In this document: in pieces, positions 55-14,947 of the stretch
Layout of the letters: each line of letters opens with the position of its first letter
Position numbering within the stretch: the first letter of the stretch is position 1
Origin: Rhodanobacter sp.
Lineage (GTDB): Bacteria; Pseudomonadota; Gammaproteobacteria; Xanthomonadales; Rhodanobacteraceae
Length of the DNA: 14,947 nucleotides
Reading direction: 5' to 3'
NCBI GenBank assembly: GCA_026193555.1
Contig: JAPHUU010000364.1
Location: 1-14,947, forward strand
Position numbers and translations under genes: made by a program
The notes under the pieces: model-generated
What the model was told of the DNA's origin: nothing
Database searches by the model: none
What the model saw: the letters and a program-made list of their open reading frames with translations, nothing else

Positions 55-1752
55 TTACAACGCAAACACGTACAGATGGCCGCCCACCGGGATGTTGACA
101 ACACGCGGGTCGTTGGCCATGTCGCCACCCCAGATCGGTGTGGCACCACCCCAGCCCGCATACACACCCACGTACTGCTTGCCATTGACCTTCCAGGTAC
201 TGGGCACACCTTCCACGCCGGAGCTCAGCTGTGCACTCTTCCACAGCACCTTGCCGGTCTTGGCATCGAATGCGTACAGATGGCCGTCCGCGCTACCGGA
301 GAACACCAGGCCACCTGCCGTGCTGACCATGCCGCCGTTCCACGGCAAGGCCGACGGGAAGCTCCACGCCTGCTCTCCGGTATTGACATCAATCGCCTGC
401 ACCTCGCCCCACATGTTCTTGAACGCGGGGTCGGCGACGACCTTGAACTTCTCGCCCAGGAACGGAAGTCCCGCCTTGTAACCCACGGTCGTGCCCTTGA
501 TCGTCATGCAGGTATGCATGGTCGGCACATAGGCCAGGTGAGTCGTCGGATCAACCGAGATCGGCCACCAGTTCTTGCCACCGAGGAAGCTGGGACAGGT
601 GAACACCTGCTTGTCGACCGTCGGCCGCATGGCCGGGTCGGTTACCGGCTTGCCGTCCTTGAATCCGCTGACCGAAGTGGCCGTGGCAAATTTCCTGGCG
701 TAGATCAGCTTGCCGTCGATGCGGTCAATGGCATAGAACCAGCCGTTGCGGCTGGCGCTGACGATGGCCTTGTAGGACTTGCCCTTGTAATCGATGTCGG
801 TCAGTACCGTCTCATTGACGCCGTCGTAATCCCAGGTGTCATTCGGGGTGTACTGGTAGCTCCACTTGATCTTCCCGGTGGCGGGATTCATCGCGATCAC
901 CGAGTCGGTGTAGAGGTTGTTGCCGGGACGCAGCGTGGCCAGCCAGGGACCGGGGTTGCCGACACCCCAGAACAGCGTGTCCGTGGCCGTGTCATAGCTT
1001 CCTGTCAGCCACGCGCCACCGCCACCCGTCTTGTACGCACCCTTGGGCCAGGTCTTGCCGCCGGGCTGGTCCGGCGACGGCACGGTGTATTGCTTCCATA
1101 CCTGCTTGCCGGTCCTGGCATCGAGCGCCACGATGAAACCACGGGCACCGTACTCGCCACCGGATTCGCCGACGATCACCTTGCCCTTGACGACCAGCGG
1201 GGCCAGCGTCATGGCATAGCCGATGTCAGCGGGAATCAGCTGTTTTTTCCAGACGGTCTTGCCAGTACGCGCGTCCAGCGCCACCACGTAGTTGTCCAGC
1301 GTGGCCATGTAGACATTGTCGCCATACAGGGCCACGCCACGATTGACCACGTCGCAGCAGACCGTCTTCAGGCCGACGTGCGAGAGATCCTGCTGGTATT
1401 TCCACAGCAGCTTGCCGGTGCTGGCCTGGAACGCGAGCAGTTCGTCCTTCGGCGTGGTGATGAACATGTAGTCGCCATTGACGATCGGCGGTGCCTCATG
1501 TCCCTGGTTGAAACCGGTCTTGTAGTCCCAGACTTGCTTGAGCCCCGTCACGTTGGCTGTGTTGATGTTGTTGAAGGGGGCGTAGCCCGTGCTGGCGTAA
1601 TCGCGGCGGTACATCAGCCAGCCGTTGTCTGTCGCTGCAGCGTCAAGACGGGCATTGGTTACCGGGGTGTAATCGGCGGCAAGTGCGCCGCCGGCGATGA
1701 CCAGCATCGCCACAAACAGGCTGGTTTGGCGCAGCGTGGTAATACGTTTCAT
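55..1752 (-). CDS. PQQ-dependent alcohol dehydrogenase, lanthanide type, periplasmic
   Basis: 565 residues. It oxidises alcohols to aldehydes in the periplasm and passes electrons to a cytochrome c. Residues 1-25 are a Sec signal peptide ending ALA|AD. The rest is an eight-bladed propeller with repeated 'ALDARTGK.VWK' tryptophan-docking motifs. Family landmarks are visible: the vicinal disulfide pair C132-C133, E200 in GGEYG, N266 in GNPGPW, and the catalytic D308. D310, two residues on (WDYDGVNE), is the extra metal ligand known from XoxF/PedH-type lanthanide enzymes; calcium enzymes such as MxaF have Ala there. There is no C-terminal haem domain, so it is a quinoprotein rather than a quinohaemoprotein and needs a separate cytochrome, which is not in this window. 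AGGGAG lies 6 bases before the ATG. It sits 30 bases after the porin gene and is probably in one operon with it. The substrate cannot be read from sequence; ethanol or another short alcohol is likely given the aldB neighbour. Confidence 0.93.
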   Translation of the reverse strand: MKRITTLRQTSLFVAMLVIAGGALAADYTPVTNARLDAAATDNGWLMYRRDYASTGYAPFNNINTANVTGLKQVWDYKTGFNQGHEAPPIVNGDYMFITTPKDELLAFQASTGKLLWKYQQDLSHVGLKTVCCDVVNRGVALYGDNVYMATLDNYVVALDARTGKTVWKKQLIPADIGYAMTLAPLVVKGKVIVGESGGEYGARGFIVALDARTGKQVWKQYTVPSPDQPGGKTWPKGAYKTGGGGAWLTGSYDTATDTLFWGVGNPGPWLATLRPGNNLYTDSVIAMNPATGKIKWSYQYTPNDTWDYDGVNETVLTDIDYKGKSYKAIVSASRNGWFYAIDRIDGKLIYARKFATATSVSGFKDGKPVTDPAMRPTVDKQVFTCPSFLGGKNWWPISVDPTTHLAYVPTMHTCMTIKGTTVGYKAGLPFLGEKFKVVADPAFKNMWGEVQAIDVNTGEQAWSFPSALPWNGGMVSTAGGLVFSGSADGHLYAFDAKTGKVLWKSAQLSSGVEGVPSTWKVNGKQYVGVYAGWGGATPIWGGDMANDPRVVNIPVGGHLYVFAL

Positions 1753-1782
1753 GGAATTCTCCCTGGTGGTCGCTTGTGATGG

Positions 1783-2985
1783 TCAGAAAAACAGGATGCC
1801 GCCGAGGGCCGCGCCGTTCATGCGAGCGGTGTTGCCGGCGAAATCCTTCGAGCGGGTCTGGCTGAGCTCGAAGTCCAGCGTCACGCTCTTGGTCAGCGCG
1901 TAGTAGGCACCGACGGTGACGTTGCTGTTGGACTTGAAATGGGCCGTACTGACCAGGTTGTCCTGGTTGCGGCTGACACCACCGCTCAGGCCGAGCTTCA
2001 GCTTCTCGGTGATCCCGAGCGTGCCTTGCAGCAGGTAGTTGGTGCCCTTGACGTCCCCTTGATCGCCATCAGTGAGGATGCCGACGCCGCGTCCGGACTG
2101 GACGTTGCCCAGCAGGCTGAACTTGCCGAGCGTGTACGAGGCACCGATCTCCCCGGCGGTCATGGTGAAGCTGGAGGGCAGTGCACCGGTGCCGGCCATC
2201 GCGTAGAAGCGCTGCGTCTTGGCGCCGATCCAGACTTTCGCGCCACCCTGCGTGTAGGACAGTTGCGCCTGCACCTGCGGTGCCGAACGCGAGTCGTAGA
2301 CCCCGGTGTTATTCACCGGGCTGAACACACCACCGGTGAAGCTCAGACCGCCACTTCCGGGCGTGGTGTAGACGATCTGGCCGTAGTTGCCAAGATAGCT
2401 GTAACCCGCGCCGATATGGCCCAGCGCCACGCGACCGCGCTGGGTCGCCTGGACCGGTGCACCCACCCCCAGCAGTGTCATGTCGGTGAGAATGGCATTG
2501 GAGCCAAAGATGCCGTAATCACGGCCGAGCTTGACCGTGCCAAACCCGGGTGTGCCGAGCGTGAAGAACGCCTGACGCACGTCGATGCCATTGTTCGCCG
2601 ACAATCCGTCGGAAGTCGCCGTGTGCACCATCAGTCCCATCTGCGCGGCAATGTCGATGCCTTCCTGCTGCGTGCTGAACTTGGTGATCAGGGCATCCGG
2701 CAGCAGACCGTTGCCGATCGTCGTCCGGTTCTGCTGGCCGCCGCAGCCCAGCCCCTGCGAGGCCAGTGCCGTCCCGCCCACCGCCGCCCCGTTGCAACTC
2801 ACCGTGGTGTAGAAGGCATTGACGAAACCGCTGATGTCGACCTTCCAGTTGTCGCCACTGAACGAGGTAGCGCTGGCCGTCAGTGGACAGACGGCCAAAC
2901 CAAGCAGCGCGATGCCGACTGACATCCCCGCATGCGACACATGTCGGCGCTGTCGCTTGCCATGACTTCCTGCGAATTTCTTCAT
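1783..2985 (-). CDS. Gram-negative outer-membrane porin
   Basis: 400 residues from the ATG at 2985. That start is chosen because GGGGAGAGGGG lies just before it and a signal peptide begins there (basic stretch, then a hydrophobic segment, ending about TASA|TSF near residue 38). An upstream in-frame ATG at 3081 would add 32 residues ahead of the signal peptide and is unlikely. The mature part starts with the typical first strand (NWKVDISGFVNAFY), has 'DVRQAFFTLGTPGFGTVKLGRDYGIF', which is the porin strand-turn-strand with the 'R.aFvGL.g.fGtv.lGR' pattern, and alternating amphipathic strands. It ends in phenylalanine (GILFF), the outer-membrane assembly signal. It probably lets small solutes into the periplasm. 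Its position directly ahead of the PQQ dehydrogenase gene suggests that it feeds substrate to that enzyme, which is inference. The exact porin subfamily is not resolved. Confidence 0.88.
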   Translation of the reverse strand: MKKFAGSHGKRQRRHVSHAGMSVGIALLGLAVCPLTASATSFSGDNWKVDISGFVNAFYTTVSCNGAAVGGTALASQGLGCGGQQNRTTIGNGLLPDALITKFSTQQEGIDIAAQMGLMVHTATSDGLSANNGIDVRQAFFTLGTPGFGTVKLGRDYGIFGSNAILTDMTLLGVGAPVQATQRGRVALGHIGAGYSYLGNYGQIVYTTPGSGGLSFTGGVFSPVNNTGVYDSRSAPQVQAQLSYTQGGAKVWIGAKTQRFYAMAGTGALPSSFTMTAGEIGASYTLGKFSLLGNVQSGRGVGILTDGDQGDVKGTNYLLQGTLGITEKLKLGLSGGVSRNQDNLVSTAHFKSNSNVTVGAYYALTKSVTLDFELSQTRSKDFAGNTARMNGAALGGILFF

Positions 2986-3128
2986 GCCCCTCTCCCCCTG
3001 ATGATTTGCTGCGTCCGGCGTCGATTGATACGCCACGGTGATTGTCGGAATGGATGGCTGGGCTGCGATCAACCAGGACAAAAGGGCAAGCCGCTCCCCT
3101 GCGCGATCGCTGCGAACGATTCACGTGC

Positions 3129-3178
3129 GGGGCATGGCCCCGTGATGTCACTCTGGAATGACCGGCGCGCCAGGCGCC
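3129..3178. other. Two small GC hairpins between aldB and the porin gene
   Basis: The gap 2986-3249 holds two perfect 5-bp stems: GGGGC-ATG-GCCCC (3129-3141, loosely flanked by TCAC/GTGA at 3121 and 3142) and GGCGC-GCCAG-GCGCC (3164-3178). Both lie after the aldB stop in the direction of transcription. Neither is followed by a T-run, so a factor-independent terminator is not supported. No convincing promoter for the porin could be seen in the gap. Confidence 0.3.
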
Positions 3179-3249
3179 CGTCCTGCATCCGTGCCTGAAC
3201 CTCAGCCGCGCAGCGATGCCCTCGAGGCCATCCCTGCGCGACTGACGTC

Positions 3250-4770
<1,521 letters not shown>

Positions 4771-4810
4771 GGCTGCGTGCTCCGAGGCTGGTGGAAGTGG
4801 ATTACATGGA

Positions 4811-4826
4811 GCAGAAGCCGTGCCGA
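4811..4826 (-). promoter_or_regulatory. Sigma-54 (-24/-12) promoter of aldB
   Basis: Read on the minus strand, the site is cGGCACGgcttCTGCt against the RpoN consensus TGGCACG-N4-TTGCW. The -24 GG is at 4824-4823 and the -12 GC at 4812-4811, exactly 10 bases apart. Transcription would start near 4799, leaving a leader of about 30 bases with a GGAG before the aldB ATG at 4770. A divergent sigma-54 activator makes the assignment coherent. It was found by eye, not by a scored scan. Confidence 0.72.
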
Positions 4827-4887
4827 TGAATCCGTCGTCAGGCCATTGCTGCACTGTGTCAATAGGGCAAAGTGCCGCTGTCATAGG

Positions 4888-4915
4888 AAAAAAAAACATA
4901 TCGCTGCAGTGCAGC
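4888..4915. promoter_or_regulatory. A-tract and GCTGCA palindrome in the aldB upstream region
   Basis: A run of nine A (4888-4896) is followed by a perfect palindrome GCTGCA-G-TGCAGC (4903-4915). The A-tract lies between the presumed activator sites and the sigma-54 promoter. It could bend DNA so that bound activator reaches RNA polymerase. The role is inferred; no match to the IHF consensus was recognised. Confidence 0.3.
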
Positions 4916-4956
4916 AGTGAGCATTCCGGGCGCGCTGTTGCGCTTTGGACACGCTT

Positions 4957-4975
4957 GTGTCTTGTATCGGAACAC
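4957..4975. promoter_or_regulatory. Degenerate second dyad of the activator site
   Basis: GTGT-N11-ACAC, the same half-site spacing as in the strong dyad at 4986-5008. The two centres (4966 and 4997) are 31 bases apart, about three helical turns. It could be a weaker binding site for the same regulator, placed on the same face of the DNA. Confidence 0.4.
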
Positions 4976-4985
4976 TCGATGAAAC

Positions 4986-5008
4986 AGGTGTCGCAAACTG
5001 CGACACCT
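4986..5008. promoter_or_regulatory. Strong inverted repeat, probable upstream activator site
   Basis: Perfect 10-bp arms AGGTGTCGCA and TGCGACACCT around AAC. It lies about 160-185 bases upstream of the aldB -24 element, a normal distance for an enhancer site of a sigma-54 activator. It ends two bases before the GGAGG of the regulator gene, so binding there could also limit the regulator's own expression. The assignment to the neighbouring activator is inference. Confidence 0.6.
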
Positions 5009-5020
5009 CGGAGGTACCCC

Positions 5021-6922
5021 ATGCGACAGACCGTTCTTTCCGACTCGATCGAAGCCGCTCGTCGGCGTTTTTTTGATAGTGGCTCGACCCCGCACGGGTT
5101 GGTGCCGGAAACCATCCTGGCGTCGTGGCGACGCTGCCTCGAAAGCGGCTTGGTGGCTACCGCACGCCCGACCAATGCACCGATGGAGCGCCATGCGCTG
5201 GGTGAGATGCAGGAAAGGCATGAAGCGCTGCGGCGGCTGTGCCGGCCGGAACTGGAAGCGCTGTATGCCAGCGCGAACCAGGCCGGGAGCATCGTGGTGC
5301 TCACCGCGCCGGACGGGTTCATCCTCGATGCGCTGGGCGACGCCGACTTTCTGGACAAGGCCGCGCGGGTGTCGCTTCGTCCCGGTGTGCCGTGGAGCGA
5401 GGCGGCAACCGGCACCAATGCGATCGGCACGGCGCTGGTCGAGCGCCGTGCGGTCGAGGTGCGCGGTGGCGAGCACTACCACGCACGGCATCGCGTACTG
5501 AGCTGCTCGGCGTCGCCGATCTTCGATCCGCACGGTCGGGTGGCCGGCGTGCTCGACGTCTCCGGCCACGCCTCAGTGCATCACCTGCATGCGCTGGGCA
5601 TGGTGCAGCTGGCGGTGGAACAGATCGAGCATCGCCTGTTCGAGTGCGATTTCGACGGCGCGGACATCGTGCGCATCCAGCCTGACCCGGCACTGCTGGG
5701 CACCACCCGCGAGGGCATGCTGGTGTTCGAGGGGCACCGGCTGGTGGCCGCCAACCGCCATGCGCTGCGGCTGCTCGGCGTCGACTGGAGCGAGCTGGGC
5801 AAGTGCCGCTACGACGAGCTGTTTGCATCGGCCTTGCCGACCCCGGGCAACGTCACCAGCATGCGCTGCCAGACCGGCGACATGGTGCACGCGCGACGCG
5901 ATCCGCCCCGCCGCAGGATCGAGGTACCCAGCACGGTGCGCGCGTCCCGCACCGTGCACAAGGCGATACGTCCGTTACGCGCACCCAGCAACGTGTTCGA
6001 TGGCGAGCAGGATGCGGCCATCGACCGTCAGGTGAGGCTGCTCGACGCCGACATCACCGTGCTGCTGCAGGGCGAAACCGGCAGCGGCAAGGAAGTGGTG
6101 GCGCGCGAGTTGCATCGGCGCAGCGTCCGCTCGCAGGCGCCGTTCGTGGCGGTCAACTGCGCCTCGCTGCCGGAATCGCTGATCGAGTCGGAGCTGTTCG
6201 GCCACCTGCCCGGTGCCTTTACCGGCGCGCGACGCGAAGGCGCACCCGGCCTGCTGCGCGAGGCGCATGGCGGGGTGCTGTTCCTGGATGAACTGGGCGA
6301 CATGCCACTGTCGCTGCAAAGCCGTCTGTTGCGCGTGCTGCAGGAGCGCGAGGTGACGCCGCTTGGCGGCGGTCACGCGCATTCGATCGACGTACGCGTG
6401 GTCGCCGCCACGCATCGCAACCTGCTGCAAGCGGCGGAGCGCGGCGAGTTCCGCGCCGACCTCTACTACCGCGTGGCGCAGTCGGTGCTGCACCTGCCGC
6501 CACTGCGTGAGCACCGCGACGTTGCCGGCACCGTGCGCCGCCTGTGGACCGCGCTGGGTGCGGAGCAAATTCCGATGCACCTGTCCGCCGAGGCGGTCGC
6601 CTGCATGGCGGCGTCATCGTGGCCGGGCAACGTGCGCGAGCTGGTGGGCGTGCTGCGCAGCCTGATGGCCCTGGGCTCGGTGGGCGCCACGCTGGGCATC
6701 GACGATCTGCCCGACAGCCTGCGCCGGCGGTTGCCGGCTCCGCCATCCACGGCACTAAAGGCCGGCGAGCAAGCCGGCAGCCTGCAGCACCTGGAGGCGC
6801 ATGCGATCGATCAGGCGCTGGCGGCCTGCCACGGCAACATGGCCGCCGCAGCGCGGCAGCTGGGGATCAGCCGCAGCACGCTGTACCGGCGACTGGAGGC
6901 GCGTCAGCAAGGTGGCGAGTAA
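5021..6922 (+). CDS. Sigma-54-dependent activator, AcoR type (GAF-AAA+-Fis)
   Basis: 633 residues. It is likely an enhancer-binding protein that senses a small molecule and opens sigma-54 promoters, here most likely aldB. An N-terminal segment with '[13 protein letters not shown]' is typical of the AcoR/acetoin-regulator family. A GAF domain spans about 80-205 ([16 protein letters not shown]), and a PAS-like segment spans about 224-270. The AAA+ domain at 325-545 has Walker A GETGSGKE (351-358), the sigma-54 contact loop GAFTGA (398-403), Walker B GVLFLDEL (418-425) and [10 protein letters not shown] Fis-type helix-turn-helix lies at 592-627 ([18 protein letters not shown]). No receiver domain is seen, so it is not a two-component regulator. 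The ATG at 5021 has GGAGG 6 bases upstream; the in-frame ATG at 4979 would place the dyad inside the coding region. Confidence 0.9.
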
Positions 6923-6947
6923 GGCCCCGCCCAGCCACGGGTCGAAC

Positions 6948-6990
6948 GCCGCCAACCCCTTGGCGGCCCGGCCGTCCTTGGCCACGGGCC
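6948..6990 (+). other. Two mutually exclusive hairpins ahead of the acyl-CoA synthetase gene
   Basis: The 91-base gap between the regulator and the synthetase holds a perfect 8-bp stem GCCGCCAA-CCCC-TTGGCGGC (6948-6967). An alternative 6-bp stem GGCCCG...CGGGCC (6965-6990) shares bases 6965-6967 with it. No T-run follows either. They could be a weak attenuator or simply GC-rich spacer. Confidence 0.25.
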
Positions 6991-7013
6991 GAGCATGCCC
7001 CGGGAGCAAGTCG

Positions 7014-8699
<1,686 letters not shown>

Positions 8700-9609: not shown

Positions 9610-9691
9610 TTAGTTATTGGCTACAGTGATGGAGTCGCTCGATGTTCGTGCAGGTCAGCGACTCCGGCATCCGTCAGCGACTTTCGGCAGC

Positions 9692-11185
9692 ATGAGTCTC
9701 GCCGTCACCCTCAGTCGTGCCCAGGAAGGGATCGCCGCGCCGCAAGTCGTGGTGGAGGTTCACCTGTCCGGTGGCTTGCCGTGCACGAATATCGTCGGCC
9801 TGCCCGAGGCGGCGGTGCGCGAGGCGCGTGATCGGGTACGGGTGGCAATCCAGTGCACGGCCTTTGAATACCCCAGTCGCCGGGTCACGGTGAATCTCGC
9901 GCCGGCGGAGCTTCCCAAGGACGGCGGCCGCTTCGACTTGCCGATCGCACTGGGCATTCTGGCCGCGAGTGGCCAGGTGCCACGCGACAAACTGGACGAT
10001 TGCGAATTTCTCGGTGAGCTGGCGCTGACCGGCGCGCTGCGCGGCGTGTCCGGCGTGCTGCCGGCACTGCTGCGCGCACGGGCGCGCGGGCGCAGGGTGG
10101 TGGTGCCGCGTGAGAATGCCGCCGAGGCCGCGCTGGTTCCCGATGTCGATGTAAGGGTGGCCGATACGCTGGGCGACGTCTGTGGCTGGCTGCGTGGCGC
10201 ACATGAACTGTCGATGCCGGTGGGCATACCCAGCGATGGTGGTGCGCATGCCGGACCGAATCTGCACGATGTGCGTGGTCAGCTGCAGGCGCGACGCGCG
10301 CTCGAGATCACCGCTGTCGGCGGCCATCATCTGTTGTTGATGGGGCCGCCGGGCACCGGCAAGACCATGTTGGCCGAACGCCTGCCCGGCATCCTTCCAC
10401 CGCTGTCGGAGTCCGAGGCGCTGGAAACCTGCGCGATCCTGTCGGTCGCCGGGCAGGCTACCGATCTTGCGCAATGGCGTCGTCGTCCATTCCGGTCGCC
10501 CCATCACACCGCGTCGGCGGTCGCCCTGGTCGGTGGGGGTTCGTATCCACGCCCCGGCGAAATATCGCTGGCGCACAATGGCGTGCTGTTCCTGGACGAA
10601 TTGCCGGAGTTCAGCCGGCACGTGCTGGAAGCGCTGCGCGAACCGATGGAGTCCGGCCACATCCTGATTTCGCGGGCGGCACGGCAGTCGACGTTTCCTG
10701 CCCAATTCCAACTGGTGGCGGCAATGAATCCGTGCCCGTGCGGCCATGCCGGCGATCCGCGCTGCCAGTGCACGCCGGATCAGATCCAGCGCTATCGTTC
10801 ACGCATTTCCGGGCCACTGCTCGACCGCATCGATCTGTGCGTGGAGGTGCCACCGGTGCCCTTGGCCGATCTCGGCCGGCCAGCCGGCGCCCATGACGAG
10901 GATTCGGCCACAGTGCGCGCGCGGGTGCTGAAGGCGCGGCGGCAGGCGCTGATGCGGGCCGGCCGGCCAAACGCTGAAATCAGCAAGCAGGAGCTGGAGC
11001 GTGACTGCGCATTGGGTCCGGCCGAGCGGCGCTGGTTCGAATCCGCATTGGAGCGGCTGGGCTTGTCCGCCCGTGCGTATCACCGCGTGTTGCGGGTTGC
11101 GCGCACGATTGCCGACATTGACGGCGGTGCTGCCCTGCTGGAACGCGAGCATCTGGCCGAGGCGCTGCAATATCGACGGCTGTAG
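9692..11185 (+). CDS. comM: ComM/YifB family AAA+ ATPase, competence-linked helicase
   Basis: 497 residues from the ATG at 9692. In Vibrio and Acinetobacter, ComM is a hexameric branch-migration helicase that promotes integration of incoming DNA during natural transformation. The N-terminal ChlI-like domain (1-165, with LPEAAVREARDRVR and NLAPAELPKDGGRFDLPIA) is followed by the Mg-chelatase AAA+ domain: Walker A GPPGTGKT (218-225), Walker B GVLFLDEL (297-304), and the cysteine cluster CPC...CQC (348-360), typical of the family. The C-terminal lid ends in a YRRL motif. The start at 9692 is chosen because E. coli ComM begins MSLS with the same continuation; its ribosome site is poor. In-frame ATGs at 9617 and 9629 would add leaders without homology. 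It presumably has its own promoter after the ubiK terminator. Confidence 0.93.
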   Translation: MSLAVTLSRAQEGIAAPQVVVEVHLSGGLPCTNIVGLPEAAVREARDRVRVAIQCTAFEYPSRRVTVNLAPAELPKDGGRFDLPIALGILAASGQVPRDKLDDCEFLGELALTGALRGVSGVLPALLRARARGRRVVVPRENAAEAALVPDVDVRVADTLGDVCGWLRGAHELSMPVGIPSDGGAHAGPNLHDVRGQLQARRALEITAVGGHHLLLMGPPGTGKTMLAERLPGILPPLSESEALETCAILSVAGQATDLAQWRRRPFRSPHHTASAVALVGGGSYPRPGEISLAHNGVLFLDELPEFSRHVLEALREPMESGHILISRAARQSTFPAQFQLVAAMNPCPCGHAGDPRCQCTPDQIQRYRSRISGPLLDRIDLCVEVPPVPLADLGRPAGAHDEDSATVRARVLKARRQALMRAGRPNAEISKQELERDCALGPAERRWFESALERLGLSARAYHRVLRVARTIADIDGGAALLEREHLAEALQYRRL

Positions 11186-11978: not shown

Positions 11979-12803
11979 ATGACGACGCCTGTACCTGCAA
12001 ACTCCGAACAAGCCGGCAGTATCGCCTGCGTGGGTATGGGCATGACTCTGGGCTCGCATCTCTCCCCGTTGGCGCGCAGCCATATCGAGCAGGCCGATGT
12101 CGTCTTCGCGGCACTCTCCGACGCCATCGTCGAGCTGTGGCTGGAACAGATGCATCCGGACGTGCGCAGCCTGCAGCCGTACTACGGCGAGGGCAAGTCG
12201 CGCATGATCACCTATCGCGAATGGGTCGAGGTGATGATGGTCGAGGTCCGCGCGGGCAGGAAAGTGTGCGCCGTGTTTTACGGCCATCCCGGCATATTCG
12301 CCTGGTCGCCGCACGAAGTGATCAAGGTCGCTCGCGCGGAAGGCTTCCGGGCCCACATGGAGCCGGGCATCTCCGCCGAAGACTGCCTGTATGCCGACCT
12401 GGGTATCGACCCCGGACGCGGCGGCTGCCAGCACTACGAGGCCAGCCAGTTGCTGATCTACGACACGCCCCTGAATCCCGGAGCCTACCTGGTGCTGTGG
12501 CAGGTAGGCCTGGTCGGCGACCGTTCGATGAAACGCTTTGTCACCGGACCGGAGTACCGGCAGGTACTGGTGGACGTGCTGAGCAGGGATTACCCACTGG
12601 ACCATGAGGTGATCATCTATCGCTGCGCGACCTTGCCGATTGAGCAGCCGCGTATCCGCCATGCGACCCTGCGCAATCTGGCTGCGACGGATGTGAGCGC
12701 CGAGGAAACCGTGGTCCTGCCGCCCGCGTCCAGGCTGCATGCCAATACTTCGGTGCGGGAGCGATTGGCGGCGTTGGACAAGGCTTGGGCGGCGCAGGGA
12801 TAG
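11979..12803 (+). CDS. Borosin-type peptide alpha-N-methyltransferase (split/SonM-like)
   Basis: 274 residues, all of it one tetrapyrrole-methylase-fold domain. Borosin methyltransferases use SAM to methylate backbone amide nitrogens of a RiPP precursor. The motif order fits: GMGMTLGSHLSP (19-30, SAM loop), Y69-x5-R75-x3-Y79 in YYGEGKSRMITY, then FYGHPGIF with Y101, and ISAEDCLYADLGIDPGRGGCQHYEA (131-155, key residues E134, D135, D144 and C150). The spacing Y69-R75-Y79-Y101 equals that of OphMA Y66-R72-Y76-Y98, recalled as its catalytic set. Unlike fungal OphMA it carries no fused core peptide and ends soon after the domain, like SonM of Shewanella, so a separate substrate is expected; one is encoded 179 bases downstream. 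Cobalamin/sirohaem methylases share the fold but lack the YGEGKSR...Y set and SAEDCLYADLG. The ATG at 11979 has only a weak ribosome site (CTCCCTGAACAGC). Confidence 0.86.
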   Translation: MTTPVPANSEQAGSIACVGMGMTLGSHLSPLARSHIEQADVVFAALSDAIVELWLEQMHPDVRSLQPYYGEGKSRMITYREWVEVMMVEVRAGRKVCAVFYGHPGIFAWSPHEVIKVARAEGFRAHMEPGISAEDCLYADLGIDPGRGGCQHYEASQLLIYDTPLNPGAYLVLWQVGLVGDRSMKRFVTGPEYRQVLVDVLSRDYPLDHEVIIYRCATLPIEQPRIRHATLRNLAATDVSAEETVVLPPASRLHANTSVRERLAALDKAWAAQG

Positions 12804-12982
12804 GCCGCGAGGCCAACGACGAGCCTCGGTGATGAATGCTACGCTGCAAGTCGGCATGGAGCGTCGCGCTGTGATGAACATTCAGAGCGTAGGGCCTTTG
12901 CCGATCATGTCAGTCGGTATAGGTCAGCAGCGTCTCCGCTGGTGGGACGGGCGATTCTTCGGCAACGGAAACGGGGGGCAAA

Positions 12983-13264
12983 ATGAGCAACACGATCGAA
13001 CTGCTGGAAACCATCGGCAAGGATGCGTCACTGCGTTACGCATCGGGGGAGAGTCTCGCCCAGATGCTGAGCGGGCGGCTGGCCAGCGAGTGCCTGCTGA
13101 GTGCGGCCCGTTCGGGCGACCGCGGTCAGCTGACGCAAGAGTTCGGCCAGCGGGACATAAAGACCAGCCATAGCGCGAACCAGGAGCCGGTCCCCGCGGA
13201 CGATGACGATCTCGGGCAGCAAGATGACGATGGCCGGGATGGTTCCGAAGTGACGGAACACTGA
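12983..13264 (+). CDS. Probable borosin precursor peptide (SonA-like) with acidic tail
   Basis: 93 residues with no signal peptide. Residues 4-55 resemble the borosin-binding domain of SonA: 'LLETIGKDASLRYA' against SonA 'FFTQLGQDAQLMEDY' (recalled). A helix-rich stretch with 'SLAQML' follows, then 'LLSAARSGDRGQL', comparable to 'INAVMTGDMEKL'. After G55 comes a flexible tail (56-93), where a methylated core would lie. It contains IKTSHSANQEPVPA and then D73-D76, D81-D83 and D86, so it is strongly acidic and lacks the hydrophobic core seen in known borosins. GGGGGG lies 4 bases before the ATG. The gene follows the methyltransferase by 179 bases and precedes the GGDEF gene by 22. The call rests on position, size and a weak leader resemblance; the core itself is unproven. 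Confidence 0.65.
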   Translation: MSNTIELLETIGKDASLRYASGESLAQMLSGRLASECLLSAARSGDRGQLTQEFGQRDIKTSHSANQEPVPADDDDLGQQDDDGRDGSEVTEH

Positions 13265-13286: not shown

Positions 13287-14947
13287 ATGCGCAGCGCTGC
13301 AAAAAGTGGTATTGCACGAGGTGCAATGCTCGTGGTGCTTCTCGGTTTCGCCGCCGGCATGGTCCGTGCGGCGGATTCAGATGCAGCCGCTCCGGCTGCC
13401 TTGCTGGCGCAGGCCGAGAATGCGAGGGTAACGGATCACCCCCTTTTCCTGAGCCTGCTGAGTCGGCTGCATCAGGAGCAAGCCCCGCTTTCACCACAGC
13501 AACGATGGCATCTGCGCTACCTGGATGCATGGCAGACGGCATTCTCGGACAAGCTGGACCAGGCCGCGCCCGTCCTGCGTGACATCATCGCTCATGTCGG
13601 AGATGCGACCCTGGCGACGCGGTCATCGGCACTGCTGATCAATGTGCTGGCGCGAGGCCGTCATTACGAAGAGGCTTACCAGCGGGCCAACCAATTGATC
13701 GCCACCCTGCCCGCGATCGCCAACCCCAAGGCGCGTGCGGAGGCCTTGCGCGCCGTCGTGCAGATGTTCAGTCTGGCGGGACAGAACGATCTGGCGCTGA
13801 AATACGCCAAGCAAATGAAGGCGGAGATCGTGCCCGGTGACAGCCGCTGCGCTGCCTATTCCTACGAACTCAATGCACTGAGTGAAGCCGACAAGCTTTC
13901 CTCGGCGAATCCCGAGCTGCGTAGCGCGATACGTACGTGTCTTGCCGACAAGCAGGCGGTGTTCGCCAATACACTGCGTCTGGATCGCGCTTATCTGCTG
14001 ACGGACGAGGGTCACCCGGACCAGGCCGTTGCCCTGCTGCAACGCATCGAGCCGAGTATCCGCCGTTCCGGGTTCCAGCCTCATATCGTCGGCCGCGATG
14101 TTGCTCTCGCCCTTGCCTATGTGGGTGTGGGCAACGACGCGAGGGCGAGAGAGGCAGCGCTTGCAGCGGTGGCGGCGAGCGATGCCGGCAGTCTCACCTG
14201 GCCGTTGCAAACGGCCTACGAGCTGTTGTACGAAATCGAAAAGCGCGCTGGTCATGACCGGGCCGCGCTGACCTACTACGAAAAGTACATGGTGCAGTAC
14301 AAGGCCGCCATGGATGACGCCAAGACGCGCGCGCTGGCCTACCAGATGATCAGGCAAGACGTTCTGTCCAAGAAGTTGAAGCTCGATGCGCTGGGCAAGC
14401 AGAACCGGATTCTTGAGCTGCGCCAGGAACTGGCAAGCCAGGCGCAGAAAACCAGCCGGCTGTACATCGCGCTGCTGCTGGTCGTGATCGCCTTCATCGT
14501 CGCGGCGTTGTTCTGGCTCAGGCGCTCCCAGCTGCGCTTCCGGCGCATGGCGCGACACGATGGCCTGACCGGATCGTTCAATCGCGAGTACTTTTTCGAT
14601 GAAGCGGAACGCACGCTGCGGCGACTGCACAAGGCAAACGCCGACGCCTGTCTGGTGGTGCTGGATATGGATCACTTCAAGTGTGTCAACGACACCTACG
14701 GTCATGCCGCTGGCGATGAAGTCTTGCGGCGCGCCGTGGCGATCTGTCGCCGGGAATTGCGTGGCTCGGATGTGTTTGGCCGTCTGGGCGGCGAGGAGTT
14801 CGGCATCCTGATGTCGGCTTGTTCGCGCGAGCAGGGCATCACCATCACCACGCGCATCCGCCGCGTCCTGGCCGCCACCCCGATGGCGGTGAAGTCGCGT
14901 ACCTCGATCATGGTGTCTGGCAGCTTTGGACTGGCCTGCAGCAGCAC
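13287..14947 (+). CDS. TPR-type sensor diguanylate cyclase (partial, cut by window end)
   Basis: 553 residues are visible and the frame stays open to the last base. It makes c-di-GMP from GTP. Residues 1-28 are a signal peptide or anchor (MLVVLLGFAAGMVRA|AD). About 30-390 is an all-helical region with TPR-like repeats, probably periplasmic, ending in a coiled coil (LDALGKQNRILELRQELASQ). One membrane helix (LYIALLLVVIAFIVAALFWL) lies at 392-411. The GGDEF domain starts near 421 (ARHDGLTGSFNREYF), with metal-binding DMDHFKCVND and the active site GGEEF at 501-505. The inhibitory site RxxD is at 492-495 (RGSD), so product feedback is expected. The start is uncertain: ATG 13287 gives a better basic n-region but no ribosome site, while ATG 13326 has GAGG 4 bases upstream. 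No terminator separates it from the precursor gene. Confidence 0.88.
   Translation, partial: MRSAAKSGIARGAMLVVLLGFAAGMVRAADSDAAAPAALLAQAENARVTDHPLFLSLLSRLHQEQAPLSPQQRWHLRYLDAWQTAFSDKLDQAAPVLRDIIAHVGDATLATRSSALLINVLARGRHYEEAYQRANQLIATLPAIANPKARAEALRAVVQMFSLAGQNDLALKYAKQMKAEIVPGDSRCAAYSYELNALSEADKLSSANPELRSAIRTCLADKQAVFANTLRLDRAYLLTDEGHPDQAVALLQRIEPSIRRSGFQPHIVGRDVALALAYVGVGNDARAREAALAAVAASDAGSLTWPLQTAYELLYEIEKRAGHDRAALTYYEKYMVQYKAAMDDAKTRALAYQMIRQDVLSKKLKLDALGKQNRILELRQELASQAQKTSRLYIALLLVVIAFIVAALFWLRRSQLRFRRMARHDGLTGSFNREYFFDEAERTLRRLHKANADACLVVLDMDHFKCVNDTYGHAAGDEVLRRAVAICRRELRGSDVFGRLGGEEFGILMSACSREQGITITTRIRRVLAATPMAVKSRTSIMVSGSFGLACSS

What the first reader, a model, noticed from the sequence alone, without database searches (positions are those of the whole stretch)
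11979..13264. Split borosin RiPP locus: stand-alone N-methyltransferase plus separate precursor
The enzyme has the borosin motif set with residue spacing Y69-R75-Y79-Y101 identical to OphMA Y66-R72-Y76-Y98, plus SAEDCLYADLG. It has no fused core, and a 93-residue protein with a SonA-like leader follows. Split bacterial borosins are known (Shewanella SonM/SonA), but few have been studied. This pair, with its unusual tail, may be a distinct type.
Basis: partly seen in the sequence, partly recalled or inferred. Interest (0 to 1): 0.9.

Follow-up and report, generated by a model that had tools for sequence, protein, structure and literature searches.

The report
Split borosin beside signalling cyclase
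A soil bacterium carries an enzyme that probably methylates the backbone of a small companion peptide, and the peptide gene sits directly in front of a membrane signalling enzyme with a peptide-binding type of sensor, which suggests that the peptide may be a signal.

Summary
The 274-aa protein is a split-borosin-type N-methyltransferase: SonM is its best solved relative (243.7 bits; best cobalamin enzyme 18.7) and its catalytic residues are invariant. The 93-aa protein is its likely precursor: a profile of 38 such precursors ranks SonA first in the PDB, though the window's own subfamily alone does not reach SonA. The enzyme belongs to a Rhodanobacter/Dyella clade (100/99) whose precursors mostly have a short polar core instead of the Cys/hydrophobic core of the paralogous locus. 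The acidic tail is not unusual.

The finding does not mention the third gene. Directly behind the precursor lies a diguanylate cyclase with a predicted periplasmic TPR sensor. In named relatives 77 of 80 complete cyclase ORFs start within 82 nt of a precursor stop. Enzyme and sensor share the same 45 of 60 genomes and 124 of 249 in the order. I propose a peptide-to-c-di-GMP signalling cassette; methylation, release and sensing are inferred. GGDEF already appears in a published scheme of borosin architectures (legend).

The parts
11979..12803 (+). stand-alone peptide backbone (alpha-N) methyltransferase of the SonM/OphMA kind, 274 aa
   Evidence: PF00590 6e-19; SonM 7ltc 243.7 bits, OphMA about 174 bits; catalytic residues invariant in 47 of 47 enzymes filed as type A and 33 of 33 filed as type B
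12983..13264 (+). precursor protein, 93 aa: leader (BBD) plus core plus acidic tail
   Evidence: profile of 38 relatives ranks seven SonA sequences first in the PDB, E 0.001-0.003; AF2 gives five helices in residues 2-54 and a disordered tail
12983..13147 (+). leader, residues 1-55, equivalent to the borosin binding domain of SonA
13148..13198 (+). putative core, residues 56-72 (QRDIKTSHSANQEPVPA); by ungapped register H63 and A65 sit where SonA L63 and I65 are methylated
   Evidence: register; methylation sites of SonA from a PMC11285071 passage; inference for this protein
13199..13261 (+). acidic, predicted disordered tail, residues 73-93
   Evidence: pLDDT under 50 for residues 62-93; composition
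13287..14947 (+). diguanylate cyclase with TPR sensor, cut by the contig end; start taken at the first ATG
   Evidence: PF00990 5.5e-32 at residues 422-552; hydrophobic stretches near residues 7-27 and 386-416; relatives: 77 of 80 complete cyclase ORFs follow a precursor
13371..14501 (+). sensor domain, residues 29-405, predicted periplasmic TPR solenoid with two invariant Cys (188, 218)
   Evidence: AF2 pLDDT 90.6, pTM 0.82; Foldseek: TPR proteins, NprR-NprX rank 2; Cys in 81 of 81
14550..14942 (+). GGDEF domain (GGEEF active site, RxxD inhibitory site)
   Evidence: motifs read in the translation printed; relatives

Best explanation
This is a three-gene split-borosin signalling cassette. (1) The 274-aa enzyme docks the helical leader of the 93-aa precursor and N-methylates one or more backbone amides in the short core that follows (about residues 60-70). 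(2) The modified peptide, whole or clipped, reaches the periplasm. (3) There it binds the TPR sensor of the cyclase encoded immediately downstream and changes its c-di-GMP output. Shown by sequence: the enzyme family and its intact active site, the SonA-like leader, the precursor-cyclase adjacency, the co-occurrence, and the predicted TPR fold. Inferred: methylation of this core, the export route, and peptide sensing. My confidence is about 0.93 that enzyme and precursor are a genuine split-borosin pair, about 0.85 that the cyclase belongs to the same pathway, and about 0.45 for the whole chain with the peptide as the ligand.
For: Enzyme; type-A clade 100/99, with Trp82 in all 50 of its members and Met in the other 31's type-B rows. 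Precursor; selection. Cassette: tblastn finds a cyclase homologue in 76 of 80 named loci, of both paralogous types; 77 of 80 complete cyclase ORFs start 0-82 nt (projected start) behind a precursor stop, the other 3 being second cyclases in tandem. In 5 of the 16 loci with several precursors and one methyltransferase (L115, L122, L128, L130, L138) there are two complete cyclases, each behind its own precursor. In distant families (L165, L166, L167) short SonA-like precursors keep the precursor-cyclase adjacency although the methyltransferase is now third. The precursor-cyclase pair persists where no methyltransferase is found in the fetched stretch (L153) or only a remnant (L157, L158). Co-occurrence in 60 genomes including the window's own: both 45, enzyme only 0, sensor only 0, neither 15. 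Within family f1 of the 249-genome set: 60 with both; of 16 without the enzyme, 15 lack the sensor and one (G175) has a weak hit, 8.3e-7. Fold: TPR, with NprR-NprX, Rap-Phr and AimR peptide receptors among the matches. Topology: hydrophobic N-terminal stretch in 80 of 81 and one before GGDEF in 81 of 81.
Against: TPR is a general protein-binding fold: the best VIA rows are eukaryotic TPR proteins such as APPBP2 and APC subunits. Distance correlation does not single out the core: core-sensor partial r 0.26, leader-sensor 0.28. Apart from the cyclase no neighbour (ORFs of 150 aa or more, crude picking) recurs in more than 6 of 47 type-A named loci, so no dedicated exporter or protease is seen and the way to the periplasm is unexplained. 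Pairing is not strict: 21 of 98 precursors have no cyclase behind them, 11 of 16 multi-precursor loci with one methyltransferase hold only one complete cyclase (some are cut by the locus end), and in G524 the SonA-like precursor lies about 3 kb from enzyme and cyclase. Six cyclases have no detectable precursor nearby (L152, L154, L155, L156, L159, L160). The type-A-only precursor profile does not find SonA and hhalign gives 13.5% probability. The core is polar, whereas the 11 enzyme-precursor pairs tested in one study acted on primarily hydrophobic cores (PMC11285071 passage). Co-occurrence tests are not corrected for kinship.
Confidence: 0.45

Rival explanations
1. The locus makes an ordinary RiPP with an outward function (toxin, metal chelator or similar), and the cyclase only controls when it is made or responds to its own unrelated signal. 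The two genes are linked because they share an operon.
For: Tight gene order with 0-82 nt gaps is what an operon looks like. Short-tailed type-A precursors without a cyclase exist (L133, L148, second precursor of L079), and 21 of 98 precursors are unpaired, so a precursor can be kept without one. His- and acid-rich cores could bind metal (sequence, inference).
Against: A cyclase is an unusual production regulator. Precursor-cyclase pairs occur twice under one methyltransferase in five loci and survive decay of the methyltransferase, which fits ligand and receptor better.
Confidence: 0.25
2. The polar core of this subfamily is no longer methylated. The precursor now acts as an unmodified partner protein, and the enzyme modifies only the precursors of the second locus or is on its way out.
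For: Core fraction of V/I/L/M/F/W/C 0.14 against 0.33 in type B; Cys in 4 of 46 cores against 44 of 49. Methyltransferase not found or decayed beside precursor-cyclase pairs in L153, L157, L158.
Against: All active-site residues are kept in 47 of 47 type-A enzymes, and the enzyme, with a clade-specific Trp82 (50 of 50), is retained in many species. KchMA methylates some acidic residues, so polar acceptors are possible (PMC11395268 section 4).
Confidence: 0.15
3. The cyclase is unrelated in function; the association is inherited gene order within one bacterial order.
For: The genomes with this pattern are relatives, so counts are not independent. In a class-wide sample of 276 genomes only 6 had a match, the window's own included; of the five others only G524 has a TPR-cyclase beside the enzyme, and its precursor is not adjacent.
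Against: Surroundings change while the module stays: 38 different immediate upstream neighbours in 47 type-A loci (crude ORF picking). Gene order inside the module changes, yet precursor and cyclase stay adjacent in L165-L167. Both are absent together in a same-genus genome, G022.
Confidence: 0.1
4. The enzyme is a tetrapyrrole (cobalamin/siroheme) methylase and the small ORF is incidental.
For: Same Pfam family, TP_methylase; weak NCBIfam hits to YabN, CobM and CysG far below their cut-offs.
Against: SonM 243.7 bits against 18.7 for precorrin-2 C20-methyltransferase; borosin catalytic residues invariant.
Confidence: 0.01

Closest known systems
SonM/SonA, type IV split borosin of Shewanella oneidensis (PDB 7LTC; PMC8429565)
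   Same: Discrete enzyme and precursor; aligned catalytic residues Y58, R67, Y71, Y93, F99, W166; a profile including this leader aligns with SonA residues 1-60 without gaps.
   Different: Precursor is 93 aa with an acidic tail and a polar core (SonA chain 7ltc_B is 71 aa); side-clamp insertion of SonM is missing; a TPR-GGDEF gene follows. A term search of that paper's main text found no GGDEF, diguanylate or operon; I did not look at the Shewanella locus itself.
OphMA and fused fungal borosins (types I-III)
   Same: Same methyltransferase family; same catalytic spacing as in the fused bacterial type III KchMA.
   Different: No fused core or clasp here.
Borosin architectures shown with a GGDEF domain (PMC11395268, Fig. 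1 legend; figure not seen)
   Same: A GGDEF domain is part of a published scheme of borosin architectures.
   Different: I could not see which type it belongs to; Imani 2022 and Lee 2024, two of the sources cited there for the further types, were not held.
RRNPP peptide-pheromone receptors (NprR-NprX, Rap-Phr, AimR)
   Same: TPR solenoid next to a gene for a small variable peptide; structural matches. The grouping name RRNPP is recalled.
   Different: Here the TPR is predicted periplasmic and joined through a membrane helix to GGDEF; sequence identity about 9-14%; similarity of fold does not show peptide binding.

Membership tests
Split borosin (SonM/SonA kind) | separate methyltransferase homologous to SonM/OphMA | tested here: met
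   SonM 243.7 bits, E 2.6e-71; no fused extension
Split borosin (SonM/SonA kind) | conserved catalytic and SAM-site residues | tested here: met
   Y69, R75, Y79, Y101, F107, W174; identical in 47 of 47 rows filed as type A and 33 of 33 filed as type B
Split borosin (SonM/SonA kind) | separate precursor with N-terminal helical borosin binding domain | tested here: met
   38-sequence profile hits seven SonA entries first; five helices; but type-A-only profile misses SonA and hhalign 13.5%
Split borosin (SonM/SonA kind) | core peptide right after the leader, suited to methylation | tested here: inconclusive
   variable segment at SonA's core position; polar composition
Split borosin (SonM/SonA kind) | backbone alpha-N-methylation of the precursor | not testable with these tools
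   needs co-expression and tandem mass spectrometry
Borosin types V-XI | published architecture and core definitions of each type | not tested
   two primary papers looked up and not held; only passages, section 4 and legends of PMC11395268 read
RRNPP-type peptide receptors | TPR solenoid sensor domain | tested here: met
RRNPP-type peptide receptors | cytosolic receptor acting on a transcription or phosphotransfer target (feature recalled) | tested here: not met
   hydrophobic N-terminus, membrane stretch and GGDEF output; so analogous at most, not a member
Cobalamin/siroheme methylases | closest relatives and score above an equivalog cut-off | tested here: not met
   best NCBIfam 28.1 bits against cut-off 525 (YabN); CobM 20.9 against 259.65; PDB 18.7 bits
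Diguanylate cyclase | GGDEF domain with active-site motif | tested here: met
   PF00990 5.5e-32; GGEEF in 80 of 80 and RxxD site in 74 of 80 complete relatives; own C-terminus cut by contig end

The most novel reading that the evidence does not exclude
A backbone-N-methylated, ribosomally made peptide is the cognate ligand of a periplasmic TPR receptor cyclase: a Gram-negative counterpart of RRNPP peptide signalling with direct c-di-GMP output. Several species of Rhodanobacter and relatives run two such channels, one with Cys/hydrophobic cores and one (this window) with polar Asn/Gln/His/Pro cores that would extend the known acceptor range of borosin enzymes.
Probability: 0.3. Interest if true: 0.9.

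Novelty: new variant of a known kind. Interest (0 to 1): 0.68.

Why it matters
To my knowledge no biological role of a bacterial borosin has been established (recall, not a search result). A precursor that stays next to a sensor cyclase in several families of one order, is in some loci duplicated with it and largely shares its presence and absence gives a concrete, cheap test of function: does the peptide set c-di-GMP through that receptor? If so, N-methylated peptides become a class of bacterial signal, with a matched receptor family that can be read from the genome. The polar-core branch also offers enzymes whose acceptor residues may differ from those used so far.

Tried and rejected
Cobalamin/siroheme methylase: rejected. 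Chance ORF for the 93-aa protein: rejected by orthologues, synteny and selection. The acidic tail as the novelty: rejected, it is common to both paralogous types. Single-sequence PDB search with the precursor: no useful hit, best 50S L9 at E 1.1. Type-A-only profile: no SonA among hits up to E 10; best a 2-on-2 haemoglobin at 0.05. Foldseek with the precursor model: no match at E 0.001, SonA complex rank 2 at E 7.5. Core-sensor co-evolution by partial Mantel: not core-specific, so not used as support. Literature: no paper in the held library with 'backbone N-methylation' plus 'Rhodanobacter', or with 'borosin' plus 'Lysobacter', 'diguanylate cyclase' or 'di-GMP'; 'borosin' plus 'GGDEF' gives one, PMC11395268. 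Imani 2022 and Lee 2024 were not held, so I do not claim that the association is unreported. Papers: PMC8429565 passages; PMC11395268 abstract, passages, sections 4 and 28; PMC11285071 passages; all others search listings only.

Rows dropped: three weak rows (G041, G051, G053; 20-24 bits) were left out, and 'full' enzyme meant over 150 bits. In one search two enzymes had no precursor in reach (L074, L131), and a regular expression filed L148 and L124 as type B although the tree places them in the type-A clade. In one search two partial cyclases (L129, L146) were skipped. In one search pairs with synonymous difference of 0.70 or more were left out of the pooled ratio (691 of 990 kept). In one search, 43 of 45 precursors formed full triples. 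The 46 type-A cores leave out the window's own, L148, L124 and the second precursor of L115; its core windows were cut by a regular expression. Alignments A1 (38) and A2 (55) were chosen by hand. One search kept 80 of 184 confirmed relatives, the cap of that tool. One search looked only at ORFs of 150 aa or more.

Full report
WHAT IS THERE. The window is contig 383 of a 2.96-Mb draft genome of 465 contigs; the loci nearest to its enzyme come from Rhodanobacter, Dyella and unclassified MAGs. The finding's two ORFs are present as described. A third gene, not in the finding, has its first ATG 22 nt after the precursor stop (13287) and runs off the contig.

THE ENZYME. Pfam places it in TP_methylase (6e-19). 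Against the PDB its best match is SonM (243.7 bits, E 2.6e-71), then OphMA variants (about 170-176 bits); the best cobalamin enzyme has 18.7 bits. NCBIfam cobalamin and siroheme models are far below cut-off. In an alignment of 82 enzymes plus SonM, the residues at SonM Y58, R67, Y71, Y93, F99 and W166 are identical in 47 of 47 rows filed as type A and 33 of 33 filed as type B; two more could not be filed. The roles of Y58, R67, Y71, Y93 and of the W166-F99 lock are from PMC8429565 passages.

TWO PARALOGOUS SYSTEMS. The genome also has a second enzyme, 72% identical, at a contig edge. In relatives there are two main kinds of locus. Type B has one to several precursors with cores such as VCCML or FCCLI. 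Type A, the window's kind, usually has one precursor with a core such as PQ(I/V/S)(T/S)-x-x-PGHEE or, in the window's subclade, KTxNxVNNNVGGG or NQxPxx before an acidic run. Cys occurs in 4 of 46 type-A and 44 of 49 type-B cores; the V/I/L/M/F/W/C fraction is 0.14 and 0.33; both have acidic tails (0.38 and 0.32 D+E). The enzyme tree puts the type-A enzymes in one clade (100/99, 50 rows; bootstrap not fully settled). That clade also holds L148 and L124, which my pattern had filed under B, and L074, whose precursor lies beyond a contig end. Trp82 is found in all 50 of them; the remaining 31 type-B rows and L131 have Met. By ungapped register H63 and A65 of the window's precursor lie where SonA is methylated (L63, I65); several close relatives (P0002-P0006, L072, L073, L078) have Val at the column of A65. 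This is a prediction only.

LINKAGE. In the named loci, tblastn finds a cyclase homologue in 76 of 80 (not in L074, L133, L135, L148, of which L074 and L135 end at or just behind the enzyme). 77 of 80 complete cyclase ORFs start 0-82 nt (projected) after a precursor stop; the three others are second cyclases in tandem. 77 of 98 precursors are so paired; the 21 unpaired include members of multi-precursor loci and loci cut short. All 80 complete cyclases show GGEEF and 74 the RxxD site. Among 47 type-A named loci, 43 have a complete cyclase ORF; L074 and L082 run into contig ends, L133 and L148 lack it. Their immediate upstream neighbours fall into 38 clusters, and no neighbour other than the cyclase recurs in more than 6 loci (crude). 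Of 16 loci with several precursors and one enzyme, five have two complete cyclases and eleven have one. Across 60 genomes (own included) enzyme and sensor domain occur together in 45, apart in 0, and neither in 15. Of 62 enzymes over 150 bits, 54 have the sensor downstream within 6 kb; of the 8 others, three lie at contig ends, one is a second enzyme in G013, three have the cyclase in front of the enzyme instead, and one (G044:C16) has no sensor-type cyclase in the 12 kb read. Of 84 sensor hits 65 have such an enzyme upstream within 8 kb. In 249 genomes of the order: both 124, enzyme only 4, sensor only 22 (12 of them weaker than 1e-20), neither 99. The Fisher values in those calls are inflated by kinship. 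In a class-wide sample of 276 genomes (own and at least three of the same order included) five besides the window's own match a SonM-like enzyme from L166 at E 1e-20; in one, G524, a TPR-cyclase follows the enzyme, but its SonA-like precursor lies about 3 kb away; in the other four no GGDEF protein was found in the stretches read.

WHAT IT MOST LIKELY DOES. The unit that tends to stay together is precursor plus cyclase: adjacency is kept where the enzyme moves (L165-L167), the pair occurs twice under one enzyme in five loci, and it outlives the enzyme in three loci examined. A ligand-receptor relation explains this best. Steps not shown: methylation, processing, export, binding, direction of the effect. 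Against it: no recurrent exporter or protease seen, no core-specific covariation, unpaired precursors and unpaired cyclases.

WHAT IS KNOWN. Split borosins are an established kind (PMC8429565, PMC11285071 passages). A published scheme of borosin architectures includes GGDEF (PMC11395268 legend), so the association as such is not mine to claim. Two of the primary papers on the further types, Imani 2022 and Lee 2024, were looked up and are not held. I rate this a new variant of a known kind, with an unusually testable hypothesis of function.

Noticed in passing
G000:C338:2-715 (L032): The same genome has a second borosin methyltransferase at a contig edge, 72% identical to the window's; the stretch where its precursors would lie is beyond the contig end.
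   Followed up: partly
window 55-8699: PQQ-dependent alcohol dehydrogenase (591.9 bits, TIGR03075), ExaC-type acetaldehyde dehydrogenase (959 bits), a sigma-54 activator and a fatty-acid CoA ligase lie close together: perhaps an alcohol-oxidation cluster.
   Followed up: no
window 9617-11185: YifB/ComM-like Mg-chelatase family protein upstream of the cassette; of the named loci tblastn finds it only in L072-L075 and L078.
   Followed up: partly
L157 1076-2201 and L158 2538-3791: Intact-looking type-A precursor and cyclase behind a methyltransferase reduced to a weak remnant (51.5 and 22 bits).
   Followed up: partly
L134 2588-2932, L136 5976-6868, L069, L070, L115 5903-6163: Precursors with long proline runs after the core (PPGPPG or PPPPPPPP), unlike the other cores.
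   Followed up: no
L123 6381-6755 and L125 6393-6707: Precursors with a second Cys/hydrophobic core further along the same chain, in L123 together with a repeat of the end of the leader.
   Followed up: no
L079 9359-9574, L133 5935-6165, L148, P0010-P0014: Short type-A precursors (69-83 aa) without the long acidic tail, several ending in Trp-containing segments; the three with context have no cyclase directly behind them.
   Followed up: partly
L165, L166, L167: Other families of the order with gene order precursor, TPR-cyclase, methyltransferase and short SonA-like precursors.
   Followed up: partly
L152, L154, L155, L156, L159, L160: Cyclases of the same family without a detectable precursor or methyltransferase in the 6-6.5 kb read; L152's sensor is 65% identical to the window's.
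   Followed up: no
L105 270-2375 (-): By eye a prolyl-oligopeptidase-like protein upstream of the cassette; its cluster is found in 3 of 47 type-A loci. A prolyl oligopeptidase (OphP) acts in fungal omphalotin synthesis (abstract in the listing), so it may deserve a look.
   Followed up: no
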